A stretch of 64,000 bases of DNA from Oryzomicrobium sp. GTDB taxonomy: Bacteria; Pseudomonadota; Gammaproteobacteria; Burkholderiales; Rhodocyclaceae. How positions within the stretch are numbered: the stretch's first letter is position 1; the number at the start of each line of letters is the position of its first letter. The stretch lies in assembly GCF_021287045.1 (NCBI RefSeq), contig NZ_JAJTBG010000007.1, forward strand, positions 190,664-254,663, given 5' to 3'. The position numbers and the translations under genes are program-made. Positions 41,738 through 54,679 of this stretch are shown here, one piece after another. The notes beneath the pieces are model-generated. The model saw only the letters and a list, made by a program, of their open reading frames with translations. It was not told the DNA's origin and did no database searches.

Positions 41738-43384
41738 TCAGCCGATGCGGAAGCGGCTGACGGCGCCTTGCAGGGTGCCGGAAAGCTCGTGCAGGCGGCG
41801 TGCCGCGTTGGCGGCGTGGCCGATGGCGCCGGCGGTGTCCTCGGACATCTGGGCGATCTTTTCCACGCTCCTGGCGATGTCGCTGGAGACGGCGCTCTGC
41901 TCCTTGATCGAGGCGGTGATGTCGTTGACCACGTCGCGCACCTTGGCGGCGGAGTCGCGAATCTGCAGGATCGATTCGCCGGCCTGGTTGGCCAGGGCCA
42001 CGCCGTTTTCCACTTGGGCCACGCCAGCTTCCATGCTGGTGACCGCGTTGCGGGTGCCGCCCTGGATCTTGCCGATCATGTCGGCGATTTCCTGGGTGGA
42101 CTGGCTGGTGCGCTCGGCCAGCTTGCGCACCTCGTCGGCCACCACGGCGAAGCCGCGGCCGGCCTCGCCGGCCCGGGCCGCCTCGATGGCGGCGTTCAAG
42201 GCCAGCAGGTTGGTCTGGTCGGCGATTTCCTTGATGGTGTTGACGATGGTGGTGATCTGGTTGGACTGGCGGCCCAGCTCCTCGATGATGGTGGAGGAGG
42301 AGCGCACCGAGTCGGCGATCTGGCGCATCTCGCCGGCGGCGCCGTGGATCACCGCAGTGCCCCGTTCCGAGAGATCACCGGATTCGACGCTGATGCCGTG
42401 GGCGACCCGGGCGTTGTCCGCCACCTGGTCGATGGACACGGTCATTTCCTCGACCGCGGCGGCCATGGCCGACGAGGCCTCGCTCTGGTGCAGGGCGCTG
42501 CCGGTGACTTCCTCGGAGGTGGCGAGCAGCTGGTCGGCGGCCTCGGTGAGCTGTTCCGAGCTGGAGATGACCTGGCCGATCATGTTGCGCAGTTCGCGCT
42601 GCATGTCGCGCATGGAGGACATCAGGCTGGTGGTGTCGCCGGGAGCAAGGCGGATTTCCTCGGTCAGGTTGCCGTCGGCGATGCGCTGCACCGCCGCCTT
42701 GGCATCCCGGGGTTCGCCGCCCAGGGCACGGAAGATGCTGCGGTAGGTGAGCACCAGGAAGCCGGCCAGCAGGGCCACGGCGATGCCCATGTAGATGGCG
42801 AACTTGAGGGCCTGGGCGCGGAAGATGGTGTCCACGTCGTCGATGTAGATGCCGGTGCCGATCACCCAGCCCCAGGGCTGGAACAGCTTCACGTAGGAGA
42901 GCTTGGGCACCGGGGCCTCGGCGCCGGGCTTGGGCCACAGGTAGTCCACGTAGCCGGCGCCGGATTCCTTGACCACCCGCATGAACTCCTGGAAGAACAG
43001 CTTGCCGTTGGGGTCCTTGAGCCCCGACATGTCCTTGTTTTCGAGCTCGGCCTTGATCGGGTGCATGAGCATCTTGTTGTCCAGGTTCTGGACGAAGAAG
43101 TACTCGCTCTTGCGGTAGCGCATGGCGCGGATGGCGCCCAGGGCGGCCGCCTTGGCCGCTTCCGGTTCCATCTGCCCGGTCTTGGCCTGGCCTTCGTAGT
43201 AGGTGACCATGGTCACCACGCCGTCGATCAGGTTGTGCACCTGCTCCTTGCGGTCCTCGATCAGCCGGTCGCGCTGGGCGGCCAGGATGAGGGCGAAGAT
43301 AACGGCGAGGATGGCGACGCTGGCGACGATCAGCAGTGTGAAGCGCGTCCGCACCGTGAGGCCCTGGGCTGCGGGGCTGGTCAT
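41738..43384 (-). CDS. Methyl-accepting chemotaxis protein with single Cache domain
   Basis: A 548-residue transmembrane chemoreceptor. Two membrane helices (about 10-30 and 190-215) bracket a periplasmic sCache domain, whose core reads [17 protein letters not shown] and [22 protein letters not shown]. Then come a HAMP and the methyl-accepting domain with the tip [20 protein letters not shown]. There is no C-terminal CheR-binding pentapeptide. Cache domains of this kind often bind small organic acids; the ligand is not identifiable. Preceded by an A/T-rich promoter region and followed by the terminator at 41688. Confidence 0.93.
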
Positions 43385-43596: not shown

Positions 43597-45255
43597 TCAG
43601 GCGACGCGGAAATGCCCCACGGTCTGGCGTAGGGAGTCGGCCAGGGCCTGGAACGAGCGTGCCGATTCGGCCGCTTCACCCATGTGGGCGTCGTTGGCCT
43701 CGGCCAGGCGGGCGATGCGCTCCACGTTGATTGCGATGTCCTGGCTGGCAGTGCGCTGTTCCCGCACCGAATCGCTAATCTCGTCGATGCCCTTGTGGGT
43801 GGTGGCGACGACGTCGCCGCTCTCGCCGAGCAGGACCGCCACCCGGTCCAGGGTGGCATGACTGGCGCGCAGGGCGGCCAGGCCCTGCTGCACCACCGCA
43901 TCCAGCTCGGTGGATTTGGCACCCACGGTCTCGGTGACGCCGCCGATCTCGGCGGCCGATTTGGCGGACTTTTCCGCCAGCTTGCGCACCTCGTCGGCCA
44001 CCACGGCAAAGCCGCGGCCCTGTTCGCCAGCCCGGGCCGCCTCGATGGCGGCGTTCAAGGCCAGCAGGTTGGTCTGGGCGGCGATCTCGCTCACTTCCTC
44101 GGTGAGGGCCGAGATGGTGCGGGTGCTGGCGATGTAGTCGGCCACGGCGGTGGCGATGGCGCCCACGGTGGTTTCCACCCCTTCGATCTCGGTCATCAGG
44201 GTGGCCACGTTGCTGCGCCCTTCCTCGCTAGCGGCCAAGCTCTGGTCAGAGGTGACGCGCACGCCGTCGGCGGAGTCGGCCACGGTGGCGATGCTGGTGG
44301 TCAGTTCCTCGACCTCGGCGGCGATGGTGGCGGCGGATTCGGTCTGCTCCCGGGTGGAGGAGGCCACCTCGCCCACCTGGCTGGCGATACTGCCGGCGGA
44401 CGCGCTCACCTGTTCGGCAATGGTGTGGATTTGGCGCACCGTGGCCTGGAGCTGCTCGGCGAAGGTGTTGAAGGACATGGCGATACGCCCCACCTCGTTG
44501 GCCGATTTCACCGGCAGGCGGCGGGTCAGGTCGCCGTCGCCGGAGGCCAGCTGGGCCATGGAGTTTTCCAGTTCGGCCAGGGGGCGGCGCAGGGCCAGGG
44601 CGGTCAGTACCACCATCACGCCGCCCAGCAGCAGTGTGACCCCGGCAATGAGCATGGACAGGGTGCGGGCCGTGCCGGCCTGGCCGAGGACGTCGTCCCG
44701 GGTGTTGGTGACGGCCTTTTCCTGGCGGGCGATCTCATCCATCAGCACCTGGCGCAGCTTGCGCCAAGCCGGGGTCTCATCCTTGTTCAGGGTGCCGGTG
44801 GCGGCCGCCGTGTCGGCCTTGGCCAAGGCCACGACCCCTTCGCGGATGCCTCGCAGCGGCGCCCAGTTCGCGGCGGCCTGATCCATTGCCTTGGCGAAAT
44901 CCGGATCGCCCGCGCCGAGCCCCTTGGCCTGGGACAGCACGTCCTCGAATTTCTTGTGGGCGTTGTCCAGGTTCGAGTAGGCCTTGGGATTGCCCGGGTC
45001 GAGCACGATGTTGCGCAGGGCCTGGCCGGCTTGCAGGCCCTGGGCGTAGAGGTCCTGGACCAGGATTAGGCGGGCCTGGTCCCGGTCGATGAATTCGCCG
45101 AAGCGGTCGGCCACCTTGTCCAGGGAATGGAGGGCGTAGGCGAACGCCCCGGTGATGCACAGGGCGGCGATTCCGAGGAGGGCGAACATGGGGAAGAGCA
45201 GGGAATTACGGAAGCCGGCGTTGGGCGAGGGGGGATGGGCGGCAATTTTTGTCAT
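43597..45255 (-). CDS. Methyl-accepting chemotaxis protein with four-helix-bundle sensor
   Basis: A 552-residue chemoreceptor. The first membrane helix is at about 17-37, followed by a helical periplasmic domain of the 4HB type (about 40-190), a second helix (about 200-222), HAMP and the signalling domain with tip [20 protein letters not shown]. Its ligand is unknown. It runs in the same direction as the other chemoreceptor, but each gene has its own terminator and upstream A/T-rich region, so they appear independently controlled. Confidence 0.92.
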
Positions 45256-45310: not shown

Positions 45311-45480
45311 CGCCTTGTCCTCGGGAAATGGCGTGGAATAACGGGCTTGGCGATGGAGGCGTCGGCCGGATGGGAATAACGCTGCTTAATTCCGCTTGGC
45401 AGCGCCAATCGGTGCATATGTTTAAGCGAATGGCATTGACGGATCGTCGGGCCGAGGCAGGAAACAGCCAAAAATCGGGC

Positions 45481-45508
45481 AAAAAAAACCCCGGCCGAAG
45501 CCGGGGGG
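45481..45508 (-). terminator. Terminator downstream of the CoA-transferase gene
   Basis: CCCCGGC (45489-45495), loop CGAA, GCCGGGG (45500-45506), followed on the minus strand by eight T. It lies 125 bases beyond the CoA-transferase stop. Confidence 0.85.
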
Positions 45509-45633
45509 ACGATCCCTCCTGGGAAGGAAAAACGGTTGGGCTGCTACGCCCTGCGGGTTCAACCGGATAGAGGGGCGCGGGCCGTGTCGTGGGGCGGTAC
45601 CCCACTATCCCCAGGGTCGAACGCGGCGGGGCG

Positions 45634-47226
45634 TCAGCCGGCGATCATGGTGCGCAGGCCCATGGGGGCGGGGGCGAAGATGCGTGCGTCCATGAGCTTG
45701 AGGTCCGGGCTGATGTGCGGGCGGAAGTCCATCAGGGCCAGCACGTCCTTTTCCAGCTCCACCCCCGGGGCGATCTCGATCAGTTCCAGGGTGCCCTCGG
45801 CGGTGAGGCGGAACACACAGCGCTCGGTGATGTACAGCACCGGCTGGCCGCGTTTCGCCGCCACCGGGCCGCTGAAGGTGCGGTGCTCCACCTGCTCGAC
45901 GAACTTGCGGGTGCGGCCTTCCTGGCGGATCGCCAGCTTGCCGTCTTCCACCGCCACGTCCAGGCCGCCGGCGGTGAAGGTGCCGACGAAGATCACTTCC
46001 TTGGCCGACTGGGAAATGTTGATGAAGCCGCCGGCCCCGGTCAGGCGCGGGCCGAACTTGCTGACGTTGAGGTTGCCCTCGGCGTCGGCCTGGGCCAGGC
46101 CGAGGAAGGTCAGGTCCAGGCCGCCGCCGTCGTAGAAGTCGAACTGGTAAGGCTGGTCCACGATGGCGGCGGTGTTCACCGCCGCGCCGAAGTTGAGGCC
46201 TCCGGCGGGCACGCCGCCGACCACGCCGGGCTCGGTGGTCAGGGTCAGCAGGTCCAGCACCCCTTCTTCGGCGGCCACGGCGGACACCCCGTCGGGCATG
46301 CCGATGCCCAGGTTCACCACGGCGCCGGGCTTCAGTTCCATGGCGGCGCGGCGGGCGATGATCTTGCGCTCGCTCATCTCCATGGGCGGGATCGAATCCA
46401 CCGGCACCCGGATCTCGCCGGCAAAGCCCGGGCTGTAGTCGGTGGCGAAGGTCTGCATGTGGTACTCGGGCTTCTCAGCCACCACCACGTAATCAACGAG
46501 AATGCCCGGAATCTTCACCTGGCGCGGGTGCAGGGTGCCCCGCTCGGCGATGCGCTCGACCTGGACGATGACGATGCCCCCCGAGTTGTGGGCGGCGGTG
46601 GCGATGGCCAGGGCCTCCAGGGTGAGGGCCTCCCGCTCCATGGTGATGTTGCCGTCGGCGTCCGCCGTGGTGCCGCGGATGATGCCGACGTGGATCGGGA
46701 AGGTACGGTAGAGCAGGCATTCCTCTCCCCCCACTTCAGTCAGGGTGACCAGCTCCTCGGTGGTCGAGGCGTTGATCTTGCCGCCGCCGAAGCGTGGATC
46801 GACGAAGGTGCCCAGGCCGATGCGCGACAGCTGGCCCGGCTTGCCGGCGGCGATGTCGCGGAACAGGTGGGCGATCACCCCCTGGGGCAGGTTGTAGGCC
46901 TCGATCCGGTTGTCCACGGCCAGTTGCTGCAACTTGGGCACCAGGCCCCAGTGGCCGCCCACCACCCGCTTCACCAGGCCGGCGTGGCCCAGGTGGTTGA
47001 GGCCCCGTTCGGCCCCGTCGCCCTGGCCGGCGGCATAGACCAGGGTCAGGTTGCGCGGCGCCGCCTCGGCGCCGAAACGGGCCTCCAGGGCCACGGCGAT
47101 GTTTTCGGGAAAGCCGATGCCGACGAAACCGCCGGTGGCCACCGTGGCGCCGTCATGGATGTGGCTGACCGCTTCCCGGGCGGAAACGATCTTCTGGCGG
47201 CGAGGGGAGGTCGGAGTAGCGCTCAT
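45634..47226 (-). CDS. Fused family I acyl-CoA:carboxylate CoA-transferase
   Basis: A 530-residue enzyme in which both half-domains of a family I CoA-transferase are joined, like propionate CoA-transferase. The catalytic glutamate should be E332 in [14 protein letters not shown], and the N-terminal half carries [10 protein letters not shown]. It would move CoA between acyl-CoA and a carboxylate such as acetoacetate, acetate or propionate. The neighbouring reductase, permease and sigma-54 regulator suggest ketone-body use. A sigma-54 promoter about 285 bases upstream and a terminator downstream make it a single-gene unit. Confidence 0.88.
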
Positions 47227-47509
47227 GGGAATCCTAACGATGTTGGCTGTGCAGGAAAGTGACGGAATGCGCCGCCGGCGTGCCGGTACGGGCGCGCCCG
47301 GTCCGGCAGGCGCGAGTGCGGCTGCCGGCCAGGGGGCCTGGCGGAAGGCGGGAGGCGTCGGGGGATGACGAGGGGCAGCCGGACGCGGGCGCTGGGCCTG
47401 GGTCCGGCAGGGCGTTGCGGCATGGGCGCCGCAGCGGGGAAAACGGCAGGGTCATGGCTCTCCTCCAACGGTCGGCGGCTCTCTCGTCCGCTCGCCCTGT
47501 TCCTATCGC

Positions 47510-47524
47510 AGGGGCCGTGCCAGC
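47510..47524 (-). promoter_or_regulatory. Sigma-54 promoter upstream of the CoA-transferase gene
   Basis: On the minus strand TGGCACG-GCCC-CTGC: the -24 element matches the sigma-54 consensus in full, and the -12 has CTGC instead of TTGC. GG and GC dinucleotides are correctly spaced by 10 bases. Start of transcription would be near 47498. Confidence 0.65.
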
Positions 47525-47587
47525 CGGTTCATCGTATTGAAATAAAAGGGGAATAGGGCAGGGCGTGGCAGATGGCCGGTGCGCCTT

Positions 47588-47664
47588 GTCTCGGGAGCGA
47601 GACGTTTTCCGGAGATTTGGCGGCTGGACGCGTCTCCCAGGCGGGAATGTCTCGGCGCAGAGAT
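47588..47664 (-). promoter_or_regulatory. Putative enhancer (UAS) sites for the sigma-54 activator
   Basis: A perfect palindrome GTCTCG-GGAG-CGAGAC (47588-47603) and a weaker copy GTCTCG-GCGC-AGAGAT (47649-47664), centres 61 bases apart, about 90-165 bases upstream of the expected start of transcription of the CoA-transferase gene. The same palindrome class recurs before the permease gene at 51861. Confidence 0.55.
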
Positions 47665-47689
47665 GGGGGAGGGTAACGCCGGGATGGCC

Positions 47690-47722
47690 AAAAAGCAGAA
47701 CGCCGGGCGGTGCCCGGCGTTC
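47690..47722 (-). terminator. Terminator of the sigma-54 regulator gene
   Basis: GAACGCCGGGC (47698-47708) and GCCCGGCGTTC (47712-47722), followed on the minus strand by GCTTTTT. It separates the regulator transcript from the CoA-transferase promoter. Confidence 0.75.
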
Positions 47723-47746
47723 GTGGCGTTTGCCCGGCGGGGCGGA

Positions 47747-49249
<1,503 letters not shown>

Positions 49250-49290
49250 AGTATGCCTTCAGGCCGTGGGGGTTAAAGCTGCACTGCGGC

Positions 49291-49316
49291 AAAAAGGGGC
49301 CCGCAGGCCCCTTTTC
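49291..49316. terminator. Terminator of the acetoacetyl-CoA reductase gene
   Basis: AAAAGGGGCC (49292-49301), loop CGCA, GGCCCCTTTT (49306-49315), with T run on the minus strand. Confidence 0.85.
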
Positions 49317-49335
49317 TTGATGCGGCGCAAACTGC

Positions 49336-50088
49336 TTACTGGTAGTAGAGGCCGCCGTTGATGTTGATGGTGGCGCCGGTGATGAAGCCGGCCAGGTCGG
49401 AGGCCAGGTAGGCACACAGGGCGCCGATCTCTTCGGGCTTGCCCAGGCGCTTCATCGGCACGGAGTCGACGATGGTCTGGAGGATCTCCGGCTTGATGGC
49501 CATGACCATCTTGGTGGCGACGTAGCCCGGGGCGATGGCGTTGACCGTCACGCCCTTGGCGGCCAGTTCCTGGGCCAGGGCCTTGGAGAAGCCGATCACG
49601 CCGGCCTTGGCGGCCGAGTAGTTGGACTGGCCGGCCTGGCCCTTGACGCCATTGACCGAGGAGATGTTGATGATCCGGCCCCAGCCGCGCTCGGCCATCT
49701 TGGCGGATACCTGGTGGGTGACGTTGAACAGGCTGTTCAGGTTGGTGTTGATCACCGCGTCCCACTGGCCCTTTTCCATCTTGGCGAAGAACTTGTCCCG
49801 GGTGATGCCGGCGTTGTTGACCAGGATATCCACCGGGCCCACCTTGGCTTCGACTTCGGCCACCATGGCCTGGCACGACGCGTAGTCGGACACGTCGCCG
49901 GCCACCGGCACGAAGTCCTTGAAGCCGGCCTCGGCCTGCTCCTTGAGCCACTCTTCCGGATTGTCGAACTGCGGGTGGTAGTTCGCCGCCACCTTGTAGC
50001 CTGCCTTCGCCAGTTCCTGGCAAACCGCCGAGCCGATGCCGCCCATGGCGCCAGTGACGAGTGCGATGCGTTGTGCGGATTGGGTCAT
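49336..50088 (-). CDS. phaB: Acetoacetyl-CoA reductase
   Basis: A 250-residue NADPH-dependent short-chain reductase that converts acetoacetyl-CoA to (R)-3-hydroxybutyryl-CoA. The cofactor site is [12 protein letters not shown]. The catalytic residues are in [10 protein letters not shown] and SNYSAAKAG. The insertion [15 protein letters not shown] is typical of the PhaB branch and absent from the FabG at 9281. No phaA or phaC is adjacent, so polyhydroxybutyrate genes, if present, are elsewhere. It has its own terminator and follows a terminator after the permease. Confidence 0.88.
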
Positions 50089-50115
50089 TGCTTACTCCTA
50101 GTCGAAACCTAGTCG

Positions 50116-50142
50116 AAAAAAAGGCAGCCCCGGAGGGCTGCC
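50116..50142 (-). terminator. Terminator of the GntP-family permease gene
   Basis: GGCAGCCC (50123-50130), loop CGGA, GGGCTGCC (50135-50142), followed on the minus strand by seven T. Confidence 0.85.
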
Positions 50143-50160
50143 TGGTTGCTGCCGGGGCGA

Positions 50161-51558
50161 TCAGACGATGCCGAAGGCGTAGTACAGGGTGATGATGAAG
50201 AACACCGCCAGGGTTTTGATCAGGGTGATCGAGAAGATGTCCTTGTAGGACTGGCGGTGGGTCAGGCCGGTCACCGCCAGCAGGGTGATGACGGCGCCGT
50301 TGTGGGGCAGGGTGTCCATGCCGCCGGAGGCCATGGCGGCGACCCGGTGCAGCACTTCCAGGGGGATGCCGGCGGCCTGGGCGCTCTGGATGAAGGTATC
50401 GGCCATGGCGGCCAGGGCGATGCTCATGCCGCCGGAGGCCGAGCCGGTGATGCCGGCCAGGGCGGTGACGGTGATGGCTTCGTTGACCAGGGGGTTGGGG
50501 ATGGCGCGCAGGCCGTCGGCCACTACCAGGAAGCCGGGCAGGGCGGCGATCACGGCGCCGAAGCCGTATTCCGAGGCGGTGTTCATCGAGGCCAGCAGGG
50601 AGCCGGCGATGGCGGCCTTGGAGCCTTCGGCGAAGCGGCTGATGACGGCCTTGCCGCCGAAGATGAACACGGTGAGGATGCCCACCAGCAGCGCCCCTTC
50701 AACCGCCCAGATGGCGACGATCTTGGAGATTTCCTGGACCACCGGGGCGGCCTTGCCGATCACCGCCGGCACGAAGGAATGGCTCTTGCCGTAGAACTCG
50801 GGGATCAGGAGGGTGAACACCTTGTTCATCACGCCCACCAGTACCAGGGGCAGCAGGGCGATCAGCGGGTTGGGCAGGTTGGTGTGCTCGAAGGGCTCCG
50901 GCTCATTGACCAGGTTGGTGCCGTAGCCTTCACCGGCGGCGGCGGCCTGGCGGCGGCGCCATTCCAGGTAGACCATGCCCAGGGCCAGGATGAACAGGCC
51001 ACCCAGGGTGCCCAGCCAGGGGGCGGCCCAGGTGTCGGTCTTGAAGAAGGTGGAGGGGATGATGTTCTGGATCTGCGGGGTACCCGGCAGGGAATCCATG
51101 GTGAAGGTGAAGGCGCCCAGGGCGATGGTGCCCGGGATCAGCCGCTTCGGGATGTTGCTCTGGCGGAACATCTCGGCGGCGAACGGATAGACCGCGAACA
51201 CCACCACGAACAGGGACACGCCGCCGTAGGTGAGGATGGCGCCCACCAGCACGATCGACAGCATGGCCCGCTTGGCGCCCACCACCTTGATCACGGCGGC
51301 GACGATCGACTTGGAGAAGCCGGACAGTTCGATCACCTTGCCGAAGATGGCGCCGAGCAGGAACACCGGGAAGTACAGCTTGACGAAGCCGACCATCTTG
51401 TCCATGAACAGGCCGGTGAACATCGGCGCCACCAGGGAGGGGTCGGTCAGCAGCACCGCGCCCAGGGCCGCCACGGGGGCGAACAGGATCACGCTGTAGC
51501 CCCGGTAGGCCACGAACATCAGCAGCGCGAGCGCCACCAGCACGATTAAAAAGCTCAT
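50161..51558 (-). CDS. GntP-family organic acid permease
   Basis: A 465-residue transporter with about 12-13 membrane helices of the gluconate:H+ symporter (GntP) family, in which some members carry 3-hydroxybutyrate. Typical blocks are LTYGGVSLFVVVFAVYPF, FTMDSLPGTPQIQN and SASGGMSIALAAM. The start ATG at 51558 follows a strong AGAGGAG site; a longer reading upstream lacks one. It would import 3-hydroxybutyrate or a similar hydroxy acid given the gene context. It is controlled by the sigma-54 promoter at 51619. Confidence 0.88.
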   Translation of the reverse strand: MSFLIVLVALALLMFVAYRGYSVILFAPVAALGAVLLTDPSLVAPMFTGLFMDKMVGFVKLYFPVFLLGAIFGKVIELSGFSKSIVAAVIKVVGAKRAMLSIVLVGAILTYGGVSLFVVVFAVYPFAAEMFRQSNIPKRLIPGTIALGAFTFTMDSLPGTPQIQNIIPSTFFKTDTWAAPWLGTLGGLFILALGMVYLEWRRRQAAAAGEGYGTNLVNEPEPFEHTNLPNPLIALLPLVLVGVMNKVFTLLIPEFYGKSHSFVPAVIGKAAPVVQEISKIVAIWAVEGALLVGILTVFIFGGKAVISRFAEGSKAAIAGSLLASMNTASEYGFGAVIAALPGFLVVADGLRAIPNPLVNEAITVTALAGITGSASGGMSIALAAMADTFIQSAQAAGIPLEVLHRVAAMASGGMDTLPHNGAVITLLAVTGLTHRQSYKDIFSITLIKTLAVFFIITLYYAFGIV

Positions 51559-51618
51559 TGTTGCTCCTCTCACACTAAATGTTTTTGTGGTTCGGCCTGG
51601 GCCGGACATGCCCTCTTA

Positions 51619-51633
51619 GCAACCCTCGTGCCC
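51619..51633 (-). promoter_or_regulatory. Sigma-54 promoter of the GntP-family permease gene
   Basis: On the minus strand GGGCACG-AGGG-TTGC, which matches the consensus TGGCACG-N4-TTGC at all but the first base. It lies 61 bases before the permease start codon; transcription would begin near 51607. Confidence 0.75.
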
Positions 51634-51860
51634 ATTCCCATAGACTCGCCTTAAGCGCTTGATGTTCCATGGCTATCGTCCGGCCGGGCGGTCCCGGGGG
51701 GCGGGGGAAGACCCGGCCAGTCCCCGAAATGGGACGGAAACGGCCGGCGGGGAGCAGGTCGGGTGTTCCGCCCATAGACTGGCCGGCGAGGGTTGCGCCA
51801 GGCTGGGCATAAGCGCATGAATACAGGGCGTTTTTGACGGTTCCGTGACAGACCGTAACA

Positions 51861-51876
51861 GTCTCCATCCGGAGAC
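51861..51876 (-). promoter_or_regulatory. Putative enhancer (UAS) palindrome upstream of the permease gene
   Basis: GTCTCC-ATCC-GGAGAC is a perfect 16-base palindrome, about 255 bases upstream of the expected start of transcription. It has the same GTCTC-N6-GAGAC frame as the site at 47588. Confidence 0.55.
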
Positions 51877-51897
51877 TTTTTGCCGATGCCCGGAAAG

Positions 51898-51952
51898 CCA
51901 CGACTGGCGCGGGGTTTGGCGATAGGGGTCTGGAACGCCGCGCCAGTCGTGG
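51898..51952. repeat. Perfect 15-bp inverted repeat between permease and clpB
   Basis: CCACGACTGGCGCGG (51898-51912) and CCGCGCCAGTCGTGG (51938-51952) are exact inverse copies with a 25-base loop. No T-run follows on either side. It is 141 bases upstream of clpB and not explained by any gene. Confidence 0.7.
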
Positions 51953-52027
51953 ATCTCCACGCCTGGGCTGTGAAGATGCCCGTCCGGTGCGGGGAGCGCA
52001 AGGGGGCTGGCAATTCTTGCGGCCGCG

Positions 52028-52056
52028 CTTGAAATCCACGGCGGGGCACCCACATA
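52028..52056 (+). promoter_or_regulatory. Sigma-32 heat-shock promoter of clpB
   Basis: CTTGAAA at 52028-52034 is a full sigma-32 -35 box. After 14 bases comes CCCACATA (52049-52056), close to the -10 consensus CCCCATNT. The clpB ATG is 38 bases farther. Confidence 0.7.
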
Positions 52057-52093
52057 CATGGCATCACACATTAATTGCCGCGAGGACCGATCC

Positions 52094-54679
52094 ATGCGCT
52101 TCGACCAGTGCACCACCAAATTCCAGCAGGCCATCGCCGACGCCCAGAGCCTGGCCGTGGGCGGCGACAACCCCTACATCGAACCCCTGCACCTGCTGCT
52201 GGCCCTGCTCAACCAGGACGACGGCGCCAGCACCTCCCTGCTCGCCCGGGCCGGGGTGAACGTGCCCGCCCTGCGGAACGACGTGGAGCAGGCCCTCAAG
52301 CGCCTGCCCCAGGTCAAGGGCAGCGGCGGCGAGGTGACGGTGAGCCGCGACCTGAACAACCTGTTCAACCTGACCGACAAGGAAGCACAAAAGCGCGGCG
52401 ACCAGTTCATCGCCTCGGAGCTGTTCCTGCTGGCGCTTGCCGACGACAAGGGTGAGGCGGGCCGGCTGGCCAAACAGCACGGCCTGGCCAAGAAATCCCT
52501 GGAAGCGGCCATCACCGCCGTGCGCGGCGGCCAGAACGTGGGCAGCCAGGAGGCCGAATCCCAGCGCGAGGCGCTCAAGAAATACACGGTGGACCTGACC
52601 GAGCGGGCCCGCCGCGGCAAGCTCGACCCGGTGATCGGCCGGGACGACGAGATCCGCCGCGCCATCCAGATCCTGCAACGGCGCACCAAAAACAACCCGG
52701 TACTGATCGGCGAGCCCGGCGTGGGTAAAACCGCCATTGTCGAGGGCCTGGCCCAGCGCATCGTCAACGAGGAAGTGCCGGAAACCCTCAAGGGCAAGAA
52801 GGTCCTGTCCCTGGACATGGCGGCGCTCCTGGCCGGCGCCAAGTACCGGGGCGAATTCGAGGAGCGCCTGAAGGCGGTGCTCAACGACATCGCCAGGGAA
52901 GAGGGCCGCATCATCGTTTTCATCGACGAGATTCACACCATGGTCGGCGCCGGCAAGGCCGAGGGCGCCATCGACGCGGGCAACATGCTGAAGCCGGCCC
53001 TGGCCCGGGGCGAGCTGCACTGCATCGGCGCCACCACCCTGGACGAATACCGCAAGTACATCGAGAAGGACGCCGCCCTGGAGCGGCGCTTCCAGAAGGT
53101 GCTGGTGGACGAGCCCAGCGTGGAAGCCACCATCGCCATCCTGCGCGGCCTGCAAGAGAAGTACGAGGTGCACCACGGCGTGGACATCACCGACCCGGCC
53201 ATCGTTGCCGCGGCCGAGTTGAGTCACCGCTACATCACCGACCGCTTCCTGCCGGACAAGGCCATCGACCTGATCGACGAAGCCGCCGCCCGGATCAAGA
53301 TGGAGATCGACTCCAAGCCCGAGTCCATGGACAAGCTGGAGCGGCGCATGATCCAGCTCAAGATCGAGCGGGAGGCGATGAAGAAGGAGACCGACGAGGC
53401 CTCCAAGAAGCGCCTGCAACTGCTCGAAGAGGAACTGGAGCGCCTGCAACGGGAATACAACGACCTGGAAGAAATCTGGAAGGCCGAGAAGGCCCAGGTG
53501 GTGGGCTCCCAGCACATCAAGGAGCAGATCGAGGCGATCCGCCTGCAGATGGACGAGGCCAAGCGCAAGGGCGACTGGCAGAAGATGTCCGAGTTGCAGT
53601 ACGGCAAGCTGCCCCAGCTCGAAGCCCAGTTGAAGGCTGCCGAGGCCGGCGATAAGGAAAGCAAGGCGCAGAAGTTCAAGCTGCTGCGCACCGAGGTCGG
53701 CGCCGAGGAAATCGCCGAGGTGGTCAGCCGCGCCACCGGCATTCCGGTGAGCAAGATGATGCAGGGCGAGCGCGAGAAGCTGCTCAAGATGGAAGACCGC
53801 CTGCACCAGCGCGTGGTCGGCCAGGATGAGGCGGTGCGGCTGGTGTCCGACGCCATCCGCCGTTCCCGCGCCGGCCTGTCGGACGAGAACAAGCCCTACG
53901 GCTCCTTCCTCTTCCTCGGCCCCACCGGCGTGGGCAAGACCGAGCTGTGCAAGGCCCTGGCCGAGTTCCTGTTCGATTCCCAGGAGCACCTGATCCGCAT
54001 CGACATGAGCGAGTTCATGGAGAAGCACTCCGTGGCCCGCCTGATCGGCGCGCCTCCGGGCTACGTGGGCTACGAGGAGGGCGGCTACCTGACCGAAGCC
54101 GTGCGGCGCAAGCCCTACAGCGTGATCCTGCTCGACGAGGTGGAAAAGGCCCACCCGGACGTGTTCAACGTGCTGCTGCAAGTGCTCGACGACGGCCGTA
54201 TGACCGACGGCCAGGGCCGTACGGTGGACTTCAAGAACACGGTGATCGTCATGACCTCCAACCTGGGCAGCCAGATGATCCAGCAGATGGCCGGCGACGA
54301 TTACGGCGTGATCAAGGTGGCGGTGATGGCCGAGGTAAAGAGCTACTTCCGCCCCGAGTTCATCAACCGCATCGACGAGGTGGTGGTGTTCCACAGCCTG
54401 GGCGAGGCCCACATCAAGAACATCGCCAGAATCCAGTTGCAATACCTGGAAAAGCGCCTGGAGAAGATGGAGATGGGCTTGCAGGTGGACGACAGCGCCC
54501 TGGCCGAACTGGCCCAGACCGGCTTCGACCCGGTGTTCGGCGCCCGGCCGTTGAAGCGCGCCATCCAGAGCGAGATCGAGAACCCCCTGGCGCGGCTGAT
54601 CCTGCAAGGCGAATTCGGGCCCAAGGACAGCATCCGGGTCACCTGCGAGAACGGGGTGATGCGCTTCAAGAAGGCCTAA
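52094..54679 (+). CDS. clpB: ATP-dependent protein disaggregase ClpB
   Basis: An 861-residue Hsp100 chaperone that solubilises protein aggregates with DnaK. It has an N-terminal double-repeat domain, AAA+ domain 1 with Walker A GEPGVGKT, the long coiled-coil middle domain ([19 protein letters not shown] onward, about 410-530) and AAA+ domain 2 with GPTGVGKT. The ATG at 52094 follows GAGGA at eight bases; an upstream in-frame ATG at 52058 lacks support. The sigma-32-like promoter agrees with heat-shock control. Confidence 0.97.

What the first reader, a model, noticed from the sequence alone, without database searches (positions are those of the whole stretch)
45634..51876. A sigma-54 regulon for CoA-transferase and GntP permease sharing a 16-bp palindrome
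Two genes flanking a PAS-type sigma-54 activator (47747) each have a -24/-12 promoter: TGGCACG-GCCC-CTGC at 47510 and GGGCACG-AGGG-TTGC at 51619. Both are preceded, further upstream, by palindromes with the same frame: GTCTCG-GGAG-CGAGAC (47588) and GTCTCC-ATCC-GGAGAC (51861). Seen in sequence: motifs and positions. Known: sigma-54 activators bind UAS palindromes typically 80-200 bp upstream. Inferred: one activator controls both genes for 3-hydroxybutyrate or acetoacetate use, with GTCTC-N6-GAGAC as its site. I know of no described operator of this sequence for this activator type.
Basis: partly seen in the sequence, partly recalled or inferred. Interest (0 to 1): 0.7.

Follow-up and report, generated by a model that had tools for sequence, protein, structure and literature searches.

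The report
Operator of a 3-hydroxybutyrate gene switch
A short DNA palindrome repeated in front of two genes is, by its conservation beside the same regulator gene in many bacteria, very probably the docking site of a known type of activator that switches on use of 3-hydroxybutyrate, the building block of bacterial bioplastic.

Summary
GTCTC-N6-GAGAC occurs twice in the window and nowhere else in the 3.91 Mb held of its genome. Both copies lie upstream of good -24/-12 boxes, for a CoA-transferase and a permease that flank a PAS-type sigma-54 activator. Of 91 non-duplicate loci with relatives of the activator, 54 have an exact site within 500 nt of its gene, 15 only a one-mismatch site and 22 neither; 81 exact sites lie near the gene, 6 in the other 1.15 Mb. 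The relatives include pseudomonad HbcR, which in P. fluorescens answers to (R)-3-hydroxybutyrate (PMC10482368, passages). The proximal site lies in 10-11-bp steps from the -24 box. An IHF-like motif sits 6-7 nt upstream of -24 in 24 of 54 promoters. The fifth base of the half-site tracks one recognition-helix residue, K/R with C and E with G, on few independent lineages. The regulator kind is known. I saw no printed operator, but could not read the founding HbcR paper. Binding is untested.

The parts
45634..47226 (-). fused CoA-transferase (YdiF/FadX-like), target gene
   Evidence: Pfam CoA_trans 2.3e-37; NCBIfam FadX 3.4e-127 but below its cut-off; solved relative E. coli YdiF 2ahu, 2.9e-146
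47453..47455 (-). start codon left in front of the CoA-transferase; in the same-genus genome G001 two genes (substrate-binding protein, chemoreceptor) begin at this point
47508..47522 (-). -24/-12 box TGGCACGGCCCCTGC (10 of 11 consensus positions)
   Evidence: identical in G001
47530..47542 (-). IHF-like TTTCAATACGATG (2 mismatches), 7 nt upstream of -24; the stretch is largely conserved in G001
   Evidence: not among the 24 promoters with at most one mismatch
47588..47603 (.). proximal operator GTCTC-N6-GAGAC, 81 nt from the -24 start
47632..47647 (.). weak third operator-like site (2 mismatches)
47649..47664 (.). distal operator, one mismatch, 142 nt from -24; conserved in G001
47698..47722 (-). 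intrinsic terminator-like hairpin after the activator gene
   Evidence: z -4.88
47747..49249 (-). PAS / AAA+ / Fis-type HTH sigma-54 activator, HbcR-like
   Evidence: Pfam PAS, Sigma54_activat, HTH_8; tree
47783..47902 (-). Fis-type HTH of the activator with recognition helix [10 protein letters not shown]
49336..50088 (-). acetoacetyl-CoA reductase (phaB), 99.7% over 740 bp to the phaB of the phaC-phaB-phaR cluster elsewhere in the genome
   Evidence: TIGR01829 above cut-off
50122..50143 (-). intrinsic terminator-like hairpin after the permease
   Evidence: z -2.39
50161..51558 (-). permease, target gene; family uncertain; 67-88% to most permeases beside activator relatives, 44-47% to a second type
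51619..51633 (-). -24/-12 box GGGCACGAGGGTTGC (10 of 11, counted by eye)
   Evidence: GGGCACGGCGGTTGC in G001
51720..51735 (.). proximal operator, symmetric variant GTCCC-N6-GGGAC, 102 nt from the -24 start
   Evidence: in G001 the counterpart GTCCCGTTTTGGCGAC is less symmetric
51861..51876 (.). distal operator GTCTC-N6-GAGAC, 243 nt from the -24 start; one-mismatch counterpart at L098:2969 in G001

Best explanation
The gene at 47747-49249 is an HbcR-type sigma-54 activator. Its Fis-type HTH dimers bind paired GTC[T/C]C-N6-G[A/G]GAC operators in front of the CoA-transferase and the permease. When its PAS domain senses (R)-3-hydroxybutyrate or a near relative, the AAA+ ring assembles on the tandem sites. 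The DNA between bends, probably with IHF just upstream of -24, and the ring contacts sigma-54 polymerase on the face fixed by the helical spacing. The permease then brings the acid in, and the CoA-transferase with PhaB or the separate 3-hydroxybutyrate dehydrogenase feeds it to acetoacetyl-CoA. Shown here: sites, promoters, spacing and conservation. Inferred: binding, the ligand, looping, IHF and the metabolic order.
For: Exact sites only here in the held 3.91 Mb. 81 exact sites near the activator gene against 6 in the other 1.15 Mb of 91 loci; a control palindrome of the same letters 0 and 0. In two of three pseudomonad genomes searched whole, 2 of 3 exact sites lie beside the activator; the third genome has none. 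First of 21,504 arm/spacer combinations. Proximal site to -24 falls at 66-69, 77-82, 88-91, 99-102 or 113 nt in 52 of 58 promoters, clusters named after seeing the data. IHF-like motif 6-7 nt upstream of -24 in 24 of 54 promoters; single-letter shuffles gave a mean of 2.45 and a maximum of 8 promoters with a match anywhere in the 60 nt. The same-genus genome keeps promoters and sites. Base 5 of the half-site tracks the helix residue: C majority in 73 of 73 decided K/R loci (5 tied, 16 without sites) and in 0 of 10 decided E loci (5 tied, 9 without sites), near-duplicates included. The activator groups with Pseudomonas, Burkholderia and Neisseriales relatives. HbcR is activated by (R)-3-hydroxybutyrate in P. 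fluorescens SBW25 (PMC10482368, passages) and is listed as a regulator of its catabolism (PMC8694187, passages).
Against: No binding or transcription data. 37 of 91 loci have no exact site near the gene and 22 none within one mismatch: 9 are Glu-helix relatives, 13 are not. Five Lys-helix loci (L034, L041, L047, L053, L087) show none even at two mismatches (L034 is cut short upstream). GlrR-type activators use TGTC-N10-GACA and can sit beside exact GTCTC-N6-GAGAC sites. The 3-hydroxybutyrate dehydrogenase gene (C25:65641) has no site within two mismatches. The permease operator nearest its promoter is only the weaker variant. In the window the IHF-like motif has two mismatches, and 13 of 13 Burkholderia-group promoters have none better than three. 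The ligand is taken over from pseudomonads.
Confidence: 0.86

Rival explanations
1. The palindromes are sites of another sigma-54 activator, chiefly the GlrR/QseF-type response regulator present elsewhere in the genome, which reads the overlapping TGTC-N10-GACA.
For: GTC-N10-GAC is common to both consensuses (PMC4987338 Table 1, passages; PMC8745638, passages). In G060, which had no hit to the window activator at 1e-120, exact GTCTC-N6-GAGAC pairs lie beside a GlrR-type gene and at one other place, each 83 nt from a -24-like box. The window's genome has a 61% relative of that protein.
Against: In the window's own genome the GlrR-type gene is followed by sites with other inner bases (TGTCGTCCCGGCCCGACA, CGTCGGGACTGGACGACA) and an 11 of 11 -24/-12 box. 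Exact sites lie beside the HbcR-type gene in 54 of 91 loci.
Confidence: 0.07
2. The palindromes are chance or serve another purpose (terminator stems, a repressor operator), and the -24/-12 resemblance is fortuitous.
For: GC-rich DNA yields many inverted repeats; terminator-like hairpins lie close by. 83 exact copies lie in 61 related genomes against 50 of the backward control, so the motif as such is not rare (sums).
Against: 165-fold enrichment beside the activator gene, conserved spacing, conservation in G001.
Confidence: 0.03
3. The activator and operators are as described, but the signal is acetoacetate, another short acyl acid or an acyl-CoA and not 3-hydroxybutyrate.
For: The CoA-transferase is nearest to YdiF, FadX and 3-oxoacid transferases; the PAS ligand is unknown, and one paper assigned the PA2005 PAS domain to autoinducer binding from conserved residues (PMC8694187, passages).
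Against: HbcR of P. fluorescens responds to (R)-3-hydroxybutyrate (PMC10482368, passages); permease and dehydrogenase neighbours recur with it.
Confidence: 0.25

Closest known systems
HbcR (PA2005 of P. aeruginosa; PFLU2630 of P. fluorescens SBW25)
   Same: PAS-AAA+-HTH sigma-54 activator; pseudomonad relatives lie next to a related permease and a dehydrogenase and carry the same operator at similar spacing.
   Different: Here the targets are a fused CoA-transferase and a permease with a phaB copy; the dehydrogenase proper lies elsewhere without a site. P. aeruginosa itself was not recognised among the genomes searched, and the founding paper is not held.
GlrR / QseF
   Same: sigma-54 activator with TGTC-N10-GACA sites, hence the same outer GTC/GAC.
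   Different: Response regulator with a receiver domain (by eye); in this genome its own sites have other inner bases.
GcsR / TyrR-like activators
   Same: Regulators with two-armed sites of 18 bp (GcsR TGTAACG-N4-CGTTCCG; PMC4894688, passages).
   Different: Other half-site sequence and ligand.
PhaB of the phaC-phaB-phaR cluster
   Same: The dehydrogenase between permease and activator is 99.7% identical over 740 bp.
   Different: It sits in a predicted catabolic regulon, not in the synthesis cluster (genes named by eye).

Membership tests
HbcR-type sigma-54 activator | PAS sensor, AAA+ sigma-54 domain, Fis-type HTH, no receiver domain | tested here: met
   Pfam hits at residues 39-131, 174-340 and 450-489; no receiver domain listed
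HbcR-type sigma-54 activator | common descent with pseudomonad HbcR | tested here: met
   A set of 85 K/R rows holds window and pseudomonad proteins, SH-aLRT 91, quick tree with long-branch warnings; that these pseudomonad rows are orthologues of PA2005 is inferred from a gene order recalled for PAO1
HbcR-type sigma-54 activator | adjacent permease and dehydrogenase genes | tested here: met
   both beside it here; pseudomonad loci have permease 70-75% and SDR 32-38% alike, though some lack a hit to one of them
HbcR-type sigma-54 activator | activation by (R)-3-hydroxybutyrate and RpoN dependence | not testable with these tools
   experiment needed
sigma-54 promoter | -24 GG and -12 GC with consensus TGGCACG-N4-TTGC (recalled) | tested here: met
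   10 of 11 positions at both promoters (for the CoA-transferase, by eye for the permease)
GlrR as owner of the sites | TGTC-N10-GACA | tested here: not met
   window sites read TGTC..GACG and AGTC..GACT
GntP permease | GntP profile match | tested here: not met
   no Pfam match above threshold; a poor model (pLDDT 57) weakly resembles TRAP, NaS1 and Pho90 transporters, best E 1.4e-3, TM 0.30
acetoacetyl-CoA reductase | TIGR01829 above cut-off | tested here: met
   388.8 bits, cut-off 302.1; the PhaB equivalog NF042966 is below its own cut-off, 195 of 436
FadX fatty acid degradation CoA-transferase | NF052271 above cut-off | tested here: not met
   425 bits, cut-off 750

The most novel reading that the evidence does not exclude
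The operators of this activator subfamily follow a simple code: all share GTC-N10-GAC, and the residue after the invariant tyrosine of the recognition helix chooses the fifth base of each half-site (Lys or Arg with C, Glu with G), so that one amino-acid change rewires a sigma-54 regulon between otherwise alike promoters.
Probability: 0.38. Interest if true: 0.6.

Novelty: new member of a known kind. Interest (0 to 1): 0.47.

Why it matters
It gives a concrete, testable operator and promoter geometry for a widespread switch of 3-hydroxybutyrate use; in the listings and passages I saw, the regulator was known but its DNA site was not given. It lets regulons be predicted from sequence, offers a compact 3-hydroxybutyrate sensor part for PHB work, and points to one helix residue as a specificity switch among sigma-54 activators.

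Tried and rejected
Chance origin of the palindromes: rejected. GlrR as owner: set low. A larger regulon in this genome: of 32 one-mismatch sites only two had a -24/-12-like box (at least 9 of 11) within 350 nt on the right side, window 47649 and a poor one (CGGCGCGGCGGTTGC at L100). A site at the 3-hydroxybutyrate dehydrogenase gene: none. Identifying the permease by fold: the model was poor and the match weak, so its family is left open. De novo palindromes in small groups gave mostly noise. Independent-pairs test of the helix/base code: only 1-2 pairs, cannot reach significance. A reading of Asn with A at base 5 was dropped on checking: the one Asn locus (L056) has 3 A and 3 G; the probability of the novel case was lowered from 0.40 to 0.38 for this and for the GlrR result below. 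Against extending the code to GlrR: the GlrR-type protein of the window's genome has Arg after the tyrosine but no C at base 5 of its two sites. Literature: ten searches; two found no paper and one search returned mostly cardiology and registries.

Rows dropped: L005-L008 as duplicates of L023, L033, L029, L027 (from then on; still); six hold-out loci at 90% or more identity to the first set; two rows without a readable helix left out of the tree. Twelve gene starts were set by hand for position counts because the automatic start lay too far upstream. In one search ties between promoter candidates went to the one nearest 80 nt, which leans slightly towards that spacing.
Full report
What is there. 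The window holds, all on the minus strand, a permease (50161-51558), a short-chain dehydrogenase (49336-50088), a PAS-type sigma-54 activator (47747-49249) and a fused CoA-transferase (45634-47226). The two palindromes are exact and are the only copies of GTCTC-N6-GAGAC in the 3.91 Mb held of the genome. Each lies upstream of a -24/-12 box with 10 of 11 consensus positions: TGGCACGGCCCCTGC at 47522-47508 and GGGCACGAGGGTTGC at 51633-51619 (consensus recalled). No sigma-70-like promoter was found in 45400-52100.

The CoA-transferase promoter also has GTCTCGGCGCAGAGAT at 47649-47664 and a weak site at 47632-47647. The permease promoter also has the symmetric variant GTCCCATTTCGGGGAC at 51720-51735. 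The same variant occurs beside the activator in L036, L068 and L086, and GTCCC with spacer 6 was shared by L068, L075 and L086. In the same-genus genome G001 both promoters and counterparts of these sites are kept, some with further mismatches.

Conservation. A scan of named genomes with the PAS part of seven relatives gave 333 relatives, of which the best 80 were kept. With the window and 14 loci this made 95, or 91 after dropping L005-L008 as duplicates. A count of all 1024 five-base arms at spacers 0-20 within 500 nt of the activator gene put GTCTC with spacer 6 first, in 45 of 95 loci; the next had 20. With corrected gene starts, 54 of 91 loci have an exact site near the gene, 15 only a one-mismatch site and 22 neither. 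81 exact sites lie in 94,582 bp near the gene and 6 in 1,154,929 bp elsewhere (one of the 6 is the window's permease site, 2.6 kb from the activator gene); a control palindrome of the same letters had none in either. In three pseudomonad genomes searched whole, 2 of 3, 2 of 3 and 0 of 0 exact sites lie beside the activator (places compared). Loci with exact sites include Rhodocyclales, Burkholderia and Trinickia, Neisseriales, Pseudomonas, Halotalea and, outside Pseudomonadota, Holophagaceae. Of the 22 without, 9 are Glu-helix relatives and 13 are not (helices); five Lys-helix loci (L034, L041, L047, L053, L087) have none even at two mismatches. This is unexplained.

Geometry. For 58 promoters with a box of at least 9 of 11, the start of the proximal site lies 66-69 (6), 77-82 (24), 88-91 (9), 99-102 (11) or 113 (2) nt from the -24 start; 6 fall elsewhere. 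The clusters were named after seeing the data and many promoters are close kin; the Rayleigh value (R 0.65) is not corrected for that. Steps of 10-11 bp mean one face of the helix. The permease promoter of the window is not among the 58; its variant site lies at 102 (by hand). Where three sites occur, the upper two are often 18-21 bp apart. A WATCAANNNNTTR-like motif with at most one mismatch ends 6-7 nt upstream of -24 in 24 of 54 promoters; single-letter shuffles gave a mean of 2.45 and a maximum of 8 promoters with such a match anywhere in 60 nt. All 24 are Rhodocyclales-type or pseudomonad-type loci. In the window the counterpart has two mismatches, in a stretch largely conserved in G001; 13 of 13 Burkholderia-group promoters have no match better than three mismatches. 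This is the usual layout of an enhancer, a bend and a sigma-54 promoter; IHF itself is inferred.

Which regulator. The activator groups with pseudomonad relatives in a set of 85 rows (SH-aLRT 91, quick tree with long-branch warnings). Most of these have permease and dehydrogenase neighbours like HbcR (PAO1 gene order recalled). I read passages only: HbcR of P. fluorescens SBW25 is activated by (R)-3-hydroxybutyrate (PMC10482368), and PA2005 is listed as HbcR, regulation of (R)-3-hydroxybutyrate catabolism (PMC8694187). The founding paper is not held, so an operator may be printed there. I saw none in the listings and passages from ten literature searches.

A wider class and a possible code. 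GlrR/QseF sites are TGTC-N10-GACA (PMC4987338, PMC8745638, passages), the same outer core. In G060 exact GTCTC-N6-GAGAC pairs lie beside a GlrR-type gene. In the window's genome the GlrR-type gene (C20) has sites with other inner bases and an 11 of 11 -24/-12 box. Within the HbcR subfamily I collected every GTC-N10-GAC near the activator gene and read base 5 of each half-site. In the first set, loci with Lys after the helix tyrosine had C in 202 of 236 half-sites, Arg 39 of 48, Glu G in 24 of 30 and C in 1. A second set of 40 loci, fetched after the rule was seen, was thinned to 34 under 90% identity to the first: Lys 9 loci, 6 with C majority and 3 without sites; Glu 15 loci, 4 G, 1 A, 4 tied, 6 without sites; Gln 5 loci, 2 G, 1 C, 2 without; one Leu locus G; three Asp and one Gly locus without sites. 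Over all, decided loci are 73 C to 0 for Lys/Arg and 0 to 10 for Glu. Against a general code: the GlrR-type protein of the window's genome has Arg at this place but no C at base 5, and the single Asn locus is undecided, 3 A and 3 G. The tree allows only 1-2 independent pairs, so this is an association on few events, not proof.

Regulon. Of 32 one-mismatch sites in the genome, one is window 47649 and one other has a poor -24-like box. So the predicted regulon is two promoters. The 3-hydroxybutyrate dehydrogenase above its family cut-off (C25:65641) has no site. The dehydrogenase in the window is a 99.7% copy of the phaB in the phaC-phaB-phaR cluster. Terminator-like hairpins follow the permease, the activator and the CoA-transferase; the scan found 6 such sites against a shuffled mean of 4.2, but those behind the permease and the activator fold better than most shuffles. 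So permease and CoA-transferase are probably separate transcripts.

What it means. The regulator kind is known; the operator, its spacing and its spread look new within what I could read. Binding, ligand and RpoN dependence in this organism are inferred.

Noticed in passing
L098:7396-8598 and L098:8603-10417 (G001), window 47227-47455: In the same-genus genome a Peripla_BP_6 substrate-binding protein and a chemoreceptor lie between the promoter and the CoA-transferase; in the window only the start of the first remains. Relatives of the binding protein lie beside the activator in L019, L025 and L033 too. It suggests chemotaxis tied to this regulon.
   Followed up: partly
window 43597-45255 and 41738-43384: Two chemoreceptor genes, one with an sCache_2 domain, follow the CoA-transferase.
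   Followed up: no
window 49336-50088 and G000:C15:114774-115502: Two phaB copies 99.7% identical over 740 bp in one genome, one in the synthesis cluster and one beside the HbcR-type gene; recent copying or gene conversion.
   Followed up: partly
L142:4349-4443 and L143:4466-4545 (G060): Pairs of exact GTCTC-N6-GAGAC 79 and 64 bp apart, each 83 nt from a -24-like box, the second pair just behind a GlrR-type gene.
   Followed up: partly
L146:3196-3415 (G000:C20): GlrR-type gene of the window's genome followed by two GTC-N10-GAC sites and an 11 of 11 -24/-12 box TGGCACGGCTGTTGC.
   Followed up: no
L010, L074: Glu-helix relatives beside a permease 88% and (in part, at a contig end) 80% alike to the window's, with GTCYG-like sites: same target gene, other operator.
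   Followed up: partly
window 50161-51558: A well-conserved permease (24 sequences, 74% mean column identity) with no Pfam family above threshold and no solved relative by sequence at E up to 1.
   Followed up: partly
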